Origin: Phaeotremella fagi
Lineage: Eukaryota; Basidiomycota; Tremellomycetes; Tremellales; Phaeotremellaceae
NCBI GenBank assembly: GCA_001599715.1
Contig: BCHU01000012.1
Coordinates: forward strand, 868,001-932,000
Reading direction: 5' to 3'
DNA length: 64,000 bases
The translations under genes and the position numbers were made by a program. The notes beneath the pieces are model-generated. The model was given only the letters and a program-made list of their open reading frames with translations. It was not told the origin of the DNA and made no database searches. Of this stretch, positions 6,130-7,891 are shown piece after piece; position 1 is the stretch's first letter; each line of letters opens with the position of its first letter.

Positions 6130-7891
6130 ATGACTGTAATCCAAACCCTCATCTCCAACTCGACAATAAGTAAGTCAAACACCAGACCCCCATTCACACC
6201 AGACCCCGATAAACATGTACACGTCGCTCCTGAATCCCCTTACTTTGTCTACTACCTCCTAGCGATCATAGGGATAGTACTACTCGGCGGAGTTTTCTCT
6301 GGACTCACCCTAGGTTTAATGGGATTAGATCATGTAAATGAACGACACCGGAACATCACTGACCCCAGGTGAATCTCGAGGTGATAGCTCTCTCTGGAAC
6401 CCCCGATCAAAGGAAGCAAGCGCCAAAGGTGTTGGCGTTGTTGAATTCAGGTCGTCATGTTATTCTAGTCGTTTTGTTACTTGGTAAGTGGTAGCTCAGA
6501 TCCGACTGACGTCAGGTAACACGGTGATCAACGCTTCTTTACCTATCTTCTTGGATTCTATTGTGGGTGATGGAGTGAGTTTAACTGATTTTAGGTTGGT
6601 GGAGGTTGGATCGCGGTTTTGGGTAGTACTTTCTTGATTGTAAGTTGAGTTTGGAGTTTGACTGATTGTAGGTTATTTTTGGGGGTACGTATTTGATTCA
6701 ATACGATTCCGTCTAACCTTGCAGAGTAAGTCTCATACACTTCCACACTGACTTTAGAATCATCCCTCAATCCGTTTGCGGAAGATACGGTCTAAGTATC
6801 GGTGCAACTTTCGCCCCTATCGTTAAAGCCTTGGTCATTGTCATGTACCCAATTGCATGGCCAATAGGAAAAGTATGTCTCCACCAAATCGTTACTAATC
6901 CCAGGCTTTGGATTTCTTTCTTGGAGCTCACGAATCAGGTTCAACTTACCGTAAAGCCGAACTCAAAACTTTTGTTACTCTCGGAGTTGAAGATAAACTT
7001 GAAGACGAAGAGGTGGCGTTGTTGGGAAGTATGCTGGAGTTTTCAGAGAAAACCGTGGAATCCGTCATGGTGAGTTGAGTCTTTAGAACAAACTAACGTC
7101 AGACACCTAAAGATGACATGTTTACTATCTCTGCGGAGAAGATTATGGATGAAGAATTGATTCAACAGGTAATTGCCTCCCCAACACCACTGACTCCAGA
7201 TCCTTCGCAAGGGCCATAGTAGAATCCCAATTTACGAACCAAGTTCTCCAGGAGCTTTCATCGGATTCATGACGTAGGTAGTCAACGTCGCCACCCCTAA
7301 CCCCAGTGTACGAGCACTTGTTGGCTACGACCCCACAGACCTTCATCCAGCATCGAAATTCATCACTCAAGTTCTACCCCAATGTCCACCTGATCTGAGT
7401 TTGGTAGAGGGTAAGTTGATCCTTTTACACCACTGACGATAGCTATGAAATAGTAGGTTCCACAAGTGAAACTCCCACCAACACCAGTTTCCAAACTGGT
7501 AGAAGTCACATTTTGCTAGTCTCGAAACATCCCGGACAGGATAACGGTGTTCTGGGAATAGTAACTCTGGAAGATGTCGTGGAAGAACTCATCGGTAAAG
7601 AAATAGTCGTAAGTCTTAACTCTAGACCTCACTGATTTCAGGACGAAACGGATCAATACTTGGATATAAGGAGGTAAGTTTGTAGCTGGAGCCTGACTGA
7701 GTTTAGTCGAATCCCCGTTGTCAGACCTAAAAGCCGAGCTCCTGGGTAGGTCTTGATAACGACTCCCACTGACACCTAGACCTGGACTCAAACGCATTTT
7801 CGAAGGTACACTCGCAAGACGTCGTGTGATACTTGCTAGACGTGGAGAGACACCTACAGGATCTTTGATTGATCACCCATCTATAGCGTAG
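6130..7891 (+). CDS. MAM3: CNNM/Mam3-type CBS-domain membrane protein, with a 1-nt exon
   Basis: Sixteen exons: 6130-6333, 6369-6483, 6516-6562, 6595-6639, 6672-6684, 6725, 6758-6872, 6905-7069, 7103-7168, 7200-7273, 7307-7410, 7443-7452, 7488-7608, 7642-7673, 7707-7745, 7780-7891. They sum to 1263 nt, giving 420 residues. The DUF21 transmembrane region carries SGLTLGLMGLD and FGEIIPQSVCGRYG. The cytosolic CBS pair includes GHSRIPIYE and GVLGIVTLEDVVEELIG. Yeast Mam3 is a vacuolar membrane protein affecting metal tolerance and mitochondrial morphology; animal CNNMs handle Mg2+. The Glu of FGEIIPQ is assembled from three exons, one of them the single A at 6725. Fifteen introns of 31-40 nt lie within 1.5 kb. 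The symbol is by family resemblance. Confidence 0.93.
6725..6725 (+). other. Predicted single-nucleotide exon
   Basis: The base A at 6725 is bounded by an intron ending CTAACCTTGCAG (6685-6724, 40 nt) and one starting GTAAGT (6726-6757, 32 nt, CTGAC branch). The joined codon is G+A+A = GAA, giving the Glu of the conserved FGEIIPQ motif. Treating 6685-6757 as one intron shifts the frame and reaches a stop. Confidence 0.8.

What the first reader, a model, noticed from the sequence alone, without database searches (positions are those of the whole stretch)
6685..6757. Predicted one-nucleotide exon inside a conserved motif of the Mam3/CNNM gene
The sequence reads GGGG, intron 6685-6724 (GTACGT...CTAACCTTGCAG), A, intron 6726-6757 (GTAAGT...CTGACTTTAG), AATCATC. 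Joining G+A+A makes the Glu of FGEIIPQ, the hallmark motif of the DUF21/CNNM family. All 16 exons then total 1263 nt, an exact multiple of three. The second intron is 32 nt, the commonest intron length here, and both introns have good branch sites. As one intron the frame breaks at once. A 1-nt exon challenges exon definition; removal may be sequential, like recursive splicing. One-nucleotide exons are extremely rare; I know of one reported in a plant gene.
Basis: partly seen in the sequence, partly recalled or inferred. Interest (0 to 1): 0.95.

Follow-up and report, generated by a model that had tools for sequence, protein, structure and literature searches.

The report
A one-letter exon in fungal CNNM
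In a likely Tremella-like fungus, a CNNM/Mam3 membrane-protein gene reads its conserved motif only if a single base lying between two very short introns is kept, so that base is predicted to be a complete exon supplying the middle letter of an almost invariant glutamate; published gene models of many related fungi lose this same amino acid, likely because they too have a tiny exon there.

Summary
With 16 exons the gene gives 1263 nt, a 420-aa CNNM/Mam3 protein (PF01595 + CBS). No single excision between 6672 and 6779, whatever its ends, gives FGEIIPQ in frame. Of 9 canonical GT-AG two-intron parses, only 6685-6724 + 6726-6757 does, leaving A6725 as a 1-nt exon. One correction: a single intron 6689-6757 stays in frame, but reads FGGTIIPQ and loses the glutamate. 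The signature branch-YAG-N-GTRNGT occurs 56 times in the 22.6-Mb genome; with strict sites only this one has fitting introns on both sides and stands up (four weak-donor places stay unresolved). New evidence: in Agaricomycete orthologues the same glutamate is gapped in 58 of 98 genome-annotated models (next-worst comparable position 7 of 98) but in 0 of 22 sequences from short, apparently cDNA-like contigs; only 9 of 29 Tremellales models keep the motif. Annotation therefore likely misses a conserved micro-exon here: 3 nt in Agaricomycetes (inferred), 1 nt in this species. One-nucleotide exons are known (plant APC11 and VPS55, Fusarium CYP621A), so this is a new member of a known kind, the first from a basidiomycete that my searches show. 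No transcript of this species was available.

The parts
6130..7891 (+). CNNM/Mam3-family gene, 16 exons, 1263 nt coding including stop, 420 aa
   Evidence: gene model; PF01595 2.6e-31 and PF00571 5.5e-10; 66% identical to a Saitozyma protein over 96%
6640..6671 (+). intron 4, 32 nt, GTAAGT...CTGATTGTAG
6672..6684 (+). exon 5, 13-nt micro-exon coding VIFG plus first base of Glu
6685..6724 (+). intron 5, 40 nt, phase 1 (G^A of the Glu codon), donor GTACGT, branch CTAAC, acceptor CAG
6725..6725 (+). exon 6: predicted single-nucleotide exon A, middle base of the Glu142 codon (G|A|A)
6726..6757 (+). intron 6, 32 nt, phase 2 (GA^A), donor GTAAGT, branch CTGAC, acceptor TAG
6758..6872 (+). exon 7, begins with last base of Glu142 then IIPQSVCGRYG
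7443..7452 (+). exon 12, another micro-exon of 10 nt (AMK + first bases of Y codon), needed to read EAMKYFQTGRSH

Best explanation
The base A at 6725 is predicted to be a complete one-nucleotide coding exon of a CNNM/Mam3-family gene, likely joined to its neighbours by two separate canonical splicing reactions that together build the Glu codon (G|A|A) of the FGEIIPQ motif. Shown: the sequence, the frame, the splice-site and branch consensus on both sides, and the uniqueness of the parse for this motif. Inferred: each intron is recognised across itself (intron definition), because these introns are only 32-40 nt. Also inferred: the two introns go one after the other, because the acceptor CAG and the donor GTAAGT are one base apart and could hardly be bound by both machineries at once. 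Either order leaves working sites: removing intron 5 first leaves GGGGA|GTAAGT...TTTAG, and removing intron 6 first leaves CTAACCTTGCAG|AAATC. Skipping the base, or retaining either intron, shifts the frame and stops early. Inferred evolution: this is the shortest form of a micro-exon that spans this Glu codon widely in Agaricomycotina (about 3 nt in Agaricomycetes).
For: (1) No contiguous excision with any start and end between 6672 and 6779 gives FGEIIPQSVCGRYG in frame; of 9 canonical GT-AG pairs (first donor 6672-6699, introns at least 20 nt) only this one does. (2) Single intron 6685-6757, skipping of exons 5-6, retention of either or both introns, and the [D1,2] stwintron reading all stop at 142-163 aa instead of 420. 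(3) The core signature is found 56 times in the genome. With strict donors within 26-60 nt, two sites pass: this one and L037, which is a 22-nt exon. (4) Donor class GTRNGT is 7.3-fold enriched upstream of branch/acceptor sites; GTACGT 3.9-fold (3 seen), GTAAGT 10.4-fold (30 seen); the window's own sites are within these counts. (5) The Glu is near-universal: 98 of the 120 first-list homologues have FGE..PQ, and the 22 that do not are 19 Tremellales and 3 Polyporales models. In the 81 listed outside Tremellales/Trichosporonales and Agaricomycetes, 81 have it. PDB chain 11gq (CNNM4) has Ala at this position where 9y9g has Glu. (6) Annotation loses this same residue elsewhere: gapped in 58 of 98 Agaricomycete genome models, against 0 of 22 short-contig sequences. 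(7) Kockovaella and Naematelia models read FGGILPQ, the product of forcing one intron here with a one-base slip (6685-6756 or 6686-6757 gives FGGIIPQ). The C. amylolentus model reads ..FRILPQ; reading through the 3' end of intron 6 here gives ..FRIIPQ. (8) The 13 other introns and the reading frame are intact, so it does not look like a decaying gene.
Against: No RNA of this species was available, so splicing is not observed. Nine Kwoniella models carry an intact FGEILPQ; whether those genes have a 1-nt exon or an ordinary intron cannot be told from protein models. No DNA of any relative could be fetched, so conservation of exactly one nucleotide is untested. In Tremellales models another place (residues 276-282) is lost as often or more (up to 14 of 28, against up to 10 of 28 around the motif), so the Tremellales part of the annotation argument is not specific on its own. 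With relaxed donors 11 of 56 signature places have some donor upstream and branch plus AG downstream; five of the other ten read on as plain exon ends, L037 is a 22-nt exon, and four (L014, L026, L039, L045) stay unresolved.
Confidence: 0.9

Rival explanations
1. A single 69-nt intron 6689-6757 with donor GTATTT is removed; the protein reads FGGTIIPQ, one residue longer and without the glutamate.
For: In frame and free of stops. GTATTT is not excluded as a donor: 5 seen against 1.6 expected upstream of branch/acceptor sites, a small count that includes this same locus.
Against: Replaces a residue that 81 of 81 listed homologues outside Tremellales/Trichosporonales and Agaricomycetes keep. 69 nt lies in the tail of the length profile (of 112 GTRAGT-donor matches of 18-79 nt by my sum of the table, 2 exceed 60 nt; that scan takes the first acceptor and so favours short lengths). 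The class GTATTN is near background (6 against 4.7), and the reading ignores a full internal acceptor and donor.
Confidence: 0.04
2. A base-call or assembly error: the true sequence has one extra A beside a splice site, so one ordinary 73-nt intron suffices and the inner splice signals are accidental.
For: One base is exactly the deficit.
Against: A one-base slip in the G run or at the acceptor gives FGGIIPQ, not glutamate, so the error would have to be a lost A, at a place outside any long homopolymer. The inner signature would be a coincidence (29 of 200,000 shuffles).
Confidence: 0.03
3. [quoted passage not shown]
For: AGAGTAAGT allows internal 6685-6726 and an external donor G+TAAGT. Stwintrons are described in filamentous fungi.
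Against: The [D1,2] product stops at 163 aa, and no contiguous excision gives FGEIIPQ.
Confidence: 0.01
4. The 1-nt exon is real but works mainly as a switch: skipping or intron retention gives a truncated frame that lowers transporter output under some conditions.
For: The six alternative outcomes listed (single intron 6685-6757, the three retentions, skipping, stwintron) truncate the protein.
Against: No RNA evidence either way. In Agaricomycetes the 22 short-contig sequences all carry the Glu, which fits constitutive inclusion if they are cDNA.
Confidence: 0.1

Closest known systems
Plant APC11 single-nucleotide exon (Guo and Liu 2015, PMC4674806) and VPS55 1-nt microexon (PMC8831610)
   Same: Nuclear, spliceosomal, coding 1-nt exon between two canonical introns; missing from reference annotations in the plant study (passages); authors of the APC11 paper also favour intron definition plus stepwise removal
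   Different: Plants; backed by RT-PCR and RNA-seq; unrelated genes
CYP621A one-nucleotide exon of Fusarium (Nelson and Syed 2026, PMC12940212)
   Same: Fungal, inside a conserved motif, found because exon phases do not match (phase 1 into phase 2, as here); supplies the middle base of a motif codon
   Different: Ascomycete P450 gene; the exon base is G (AGGGT) within a 139-nt stretch in F. graminearum; backed by SRA reads and 20 orthologues. Here the base is A (AGAGT) within 73 nt, in a likely basidiomycete, and transcripts are lacking
Spliceosomal twin introns (stwintrons) of fungi (PMC5639578, PMC6616335)
   Same: Two adjacent introns that need consecutive reactions
   Different: A stwintron leaves no exon between; that reading is excluded here by frame
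Mitochondrial 1-nt exons (placozoan cox1, group I introns, PMC5436844; Ophiostoma-group rnl, group II introns, PMC12308204)
   Same: One exon base between two introns
   Different: Group I or II introns in organelles, not spliceosomal

Membership tests
CNNM / Mam3 (DUF21) family | CNNM transmembrane domain PF01595 | tested here: met
   109.1 bits, cut-off 28.4, residues 45-215
CNNM / Mam3 (DUF21) family | CBS domain(s) after the membrane part | tested here: met
   PF00571 39.9 bits, residues 303-355; aligned with CNNM4 chains over 37-377
CNNM / Mam3 (DUF21) family | FGE[IVL].PQ motif | tested here: met
   Met only with the 1-nt exon
CNNM / Mam3 (DUF21) family | ion transport activity | not testable with these tools
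   No assay; function taken from the family
Spliceosomal single-nucleotide exon (APC11 / VPS55 / CYP621A kind) | canonical GT-AG introns directly on both sides of one base | tested here: met
Spliceosomal single-nucleotide exon (APC11 / VPS55 / CYP621A kind) | frame and conserved protein require the base | tested here: met
   one in-frame rival without the Glu exists (6689-6757)
Spliceosomal single-nucleotide exon (APC11 / VPS55 / CYP621A kind) | conserved at the same place in orthologues | tested here: inconclusive
   Protein models of relatives break at this codon; no DNA of relatives could be fetched
Spliceosomal single-nucleotide exon (APC11 / VPS55 / CYP621A kind) | base present in mRNA | not testable with these tools
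   No transcripts of this species held
Stwintron | nested introns removed with no exon between | tested here: not met
   No contiguous excision gives the motif; [D1,2] reading truncates

The most novel reading that the evidence does not exclude
The one-nucleotide exon is the end point of an ancient, shrinking micro-exon: across mushrooms, polypores and Tremellales the key membrane glutamate of CNNM transporters is coded by its own micro-exon, 3 nt in Agaricomycetes and worn down to a single base in this fungus, and annotation of dozens of fungal genomes has silently deleted that residue.
Probability: 0.5. Interest if true: 0.78.

Novelty: new member of a known kind. Interest (0 to 1): 0.66.

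Why it matters
If true, it adds basidiomycetes to plants and ascomycetes on the very short list of lineages with a nuclear one-nucleotide exon, here between introns of only 40 and 32 nt, where exon definition can hardly operate. It offers a compact substrate for asking how the spliceosome handles an acceptor and a donor one base apart. It also points to a systematic error: the motif is incomplete in 74 of 98 genome-derived Agaricomycete models listed here, which would mislead alignments, structure prediction and functional work, and it may give a natural series (3 nt to 1 nt) for studying how exons shrink.

Tried and rejected
Single intron 6685-6757, intron retention, exon skipping and stwintron readings were translated and rejected on frame.

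The first gene model lacked the 10-nt exon 12 and stopped at 319 aa; adding intron 7453-7487 fixed it.

A second genome-wide 1-nt exon was sought: L037 looked like one but has a 22-nt exon in an ABC-transporter-like gene; L054 is an ordinary exon end. With relaxed donors ten other places have some donor and acceptor at hand; L027, L032, L033, L036 and L054 read on as plain exon ends, L037 is as above, and L014, L026, L039 and L045 were left unresolved.

DNA of relatives was sought in viral and prokaryote contigs with a Kwoniella protein: none. Literature on the CNNM glutamate was sought without use. I tried to infer exact exon borders in other Tremellales by back-translating broken models in my head; this is too ambiguous to report beyond the phase-2 acceptor hint.

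Rows left out of counts: Tremella mesenterica P0259 (50% identical to the Naematelia query, motif intact, taken as the other paralogue) and the Kwoniella paralogue P0120 were not put in the 29 Tremellales models; loci L003 and L016 were dropped as copies of the window.

Full report
WHAT WAS CHECKED. The window lies in a 22.6-Mb genome of 24 contigs. The gene at 6130-7891 (+) codes a 420-aa protein with a CNNM transmembrane domain (PF01595, 109.1 bits) and a CBS domain, aligning with CNNM4 structures over residues 37-377. Its nearest listed relatives are Tremellales (Saitozyma 66%, Cryptococcus sp. 68%, Kockovaella 71% identity), so the organism is likely a member of that order.

GENE MODEL. 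Intron lengths are 31-40 nt, 32 nt being commonest (6 of 15); 13 of 15 donors fit GTRNGT and 14 of 15 ends fit CTRAY-N1-7-YAG. Exon 5 is 13 nt, exon 6 is the single A at 6725, and exon 12 is 10 nt. Between 6640 and 6757 only 14 of 118 bases are exonic.

THE PARSE IS FORCED BY THE MOTIF. Removing any one contiguous stretch, whatever its ends between 6672 and 6779, never yields FGEIIPQSVCGRYG. Of nine pairs of canonical GT-AG introns (first donor in 6672-6699, each intron at least 20 nt) only 6685-6724 with 6726-6757 does. The single intron 6685-6757, retention of either or both introns, skipping of exons 5-6, and the [D1,2] stwintron reading give proteins of 142-163 aa. It keeps the frame but replaces the glutamate, uses a donor outside the enriched GTRNGT class, and would be 69 nt long, where introns with GTRAGT donors in the held DNA cluster at 32-38 and 46-53 nt (2 of 112 matches of 18-79 nt exceed 60 nt by my sum of that table; the scan favours short lengths and the DNA is not a random sample).

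CHANCE. The signature branch, YAG, one base, GTRNGT turned up in 29 of 200,000 dinucleotide-preserving shuffles of the 73-nt stretch; the bare AGAGT turned up in 11%. In the whole genome the signature occurs 56 times (17 + 39). Reversed-pattern controls gave 40 and 19, so the bare signature is not clearly enriched. All 56 were scanned in fetched DNA (47 with loci, 9 fetched). With a strict donor and a branch plus acceptor at 26-60 nt, the window site and L037 pass; L037 resolves to a 22-nt exon. With any GTR donor within 75 nt, 11 of 56 pass including the window: five others read on as ordinary exon ends (L027, L032, L033, L036, L054), L037 is as above, and four with weak donors (L014, L026, L039, L045) were not resolved. 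So weaker one-nucleotide exons elsewhere are not excluded.

THE SAME CODON GIVES TROUBLE IN RELATIVES. Of the 120 best homologues, 98 carry FGE..PQ; the other 22 are 19 Tremellales and three Polyporales models. With one model added later, 9 of 29 Tremellales models keep the motif while 6 of 6 Trichosporonales do. Two annotation versions of Kwoniella dejecticola and of K. pini, and two strains of K. mangroviensis, differ at this place, among others. A second search, from a Trametes protein, listed 120 orthologues. Of these, 98 come from annotated genomes, and 22 come from the sources lgn/jgi: proteins of 421-501 aa on contigs of 1.5-4.7 kb. I take the latter to be cDNA-derived, because the gene is intron-rich (inference; their DNA was not seen). 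The motif is present in 22 of 22 of the latter and in 24 of 98 of the former (Fisher p = 1.2e-11). Column by column over residues 45-370, the glutamate is gapped in 58 of 98 genome models and 0 of 22 others. Apart from residue 192, which is gapped in all 120 and so is an insertion in the window's protein, the next-worst position is gapped in 7 of 98. Forty-eight models show an exact in-frame loss of the one residue. Species of one genus differ (Trametes, Armillaria, Suillus, Cubamyces, Pisolithus), so annotation rather than evolution is the likely cause. In the 81 remaining first-list proteins (Ustilaginomycotina, Pucciniomycotina, Mrakia, Glomeromycotina and others, including a Kwoniella paralogue) the motif is intact in 81. 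I infer a micro-exon of 3 nt at this codon in Agaricomycetes. In 31 of 93 broken models (those that keep I-PQ but neither FGE nor a plain FG-I-PQ join) the residue before I-PQ is never one coded only by NNY codons, as expected if the downstream acceptor lies in phase 2 as intron 6 does here; the species are not independent, so this is a hint.

LIMITS. In Tremellales models residues 276-282 are lost as often or more (up to 14 of 28, against up to 10 of 28 around the motif), so the Tremellales figures alone are not specific; the Agaricomycete figures are. No DNA of relatives could be fetched, and no RNA was available. Two other CNNM genes of this genome carry the motif without an intron inside it (L002 FGEIIPQ; L001 FAEIIPQ, with an intron just upstream), read by eye on the reverse strand.

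MECHANISM. Shown: sites, frame, uniqueness. Inferred: intron definition and stepwise removal. Either order leaves working sites: after intron 5 leaves, GGGGA|GTAAGT; after intron 6 leaves, CTAACCTTGCAG|AAATC. Guo and Liu argue likewise for APC11 (discussion section read). The glutamate is probably functional: a CNNM4 structure entry, 11gq, carries alanine there (alignment; the depositors' reason was not seen).

WHAT IS KNOWN. Seen here: opening text and discussion of the Arabidopsis APC11 paper; passages of the plant microexon study reporting 1-nt exons in APC11 and VPS55; abstract, introduction, results and discussion of the Fusarium CYP621A paper of 2026, which calls itself the first for a fungal gene; passages on mitochondrial cases; stwintron passages, and an outline with abstract. 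Searches of the held library for 'single-nucleotide exon', 'one-nucleotide exon', six spelling variants, microexon+basidiomycete, microexon+Mam3 and CNNM+micro-exon listed no basidiomycete one-nucleotide exon and no fungal CNNM/Mam3 micro-exon that I could see. Of most listed papers I saw only title and abstract start, of PMC3990503 one passage, and most subscription papers are not in that library.

VERDICT. It is a new member of a known kind; the wider, bolder point is a micro-exon at one functional codon that likely varies in length between fungal classes and that genome annotation keeps losing.

Noticed in passing
7443-7452 and 7453-7487: A 10-nt micro-exon in the same gene; its downstream intron (35 nt) lacks the usual CTRAY branch motif (it has CCAAC).
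   Followed up: partly
window 8022 onward: The next gene downstream codes a flavodoxin-domain protein (likely NADPH-cytochrome P450 reductase). A Kwoniella bestiolae model (P0032) carries PF01595 together with PF00175 and PF00667, suggesting conserved gene order and a mis-joined model.
   Followed up: partly
L037, reverse strand near 1510: A 22-nt micro-exon in an ABC-transporter-like gene between short introns; tiny exons may be frequent in this genome.
   Followed up: partly
residues 276-282 of the protein (exon 10/11 border, around 7274-7306): Another hot spot where Tremellales gene models lose residues (up to 14 of 28).
   Followed up: no
window and fetched loci, about 217 kb: Introns with GTRAGT donors fall into two length groups, 32-38 and 46-53 nt.
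   Followed up: no
L001 and L002: Two further CNNM genes of this genome have the motif uninterrupted (FAEIIPQ and FGEIIPQ).
   Followed up: partly
L014, L026, L039, L045: Four places with the branch-YAG-N-GTRNGT signature and only weak donors upstream; whether any is a real one-nucleotide exon was not settled.
   Followed up: partly
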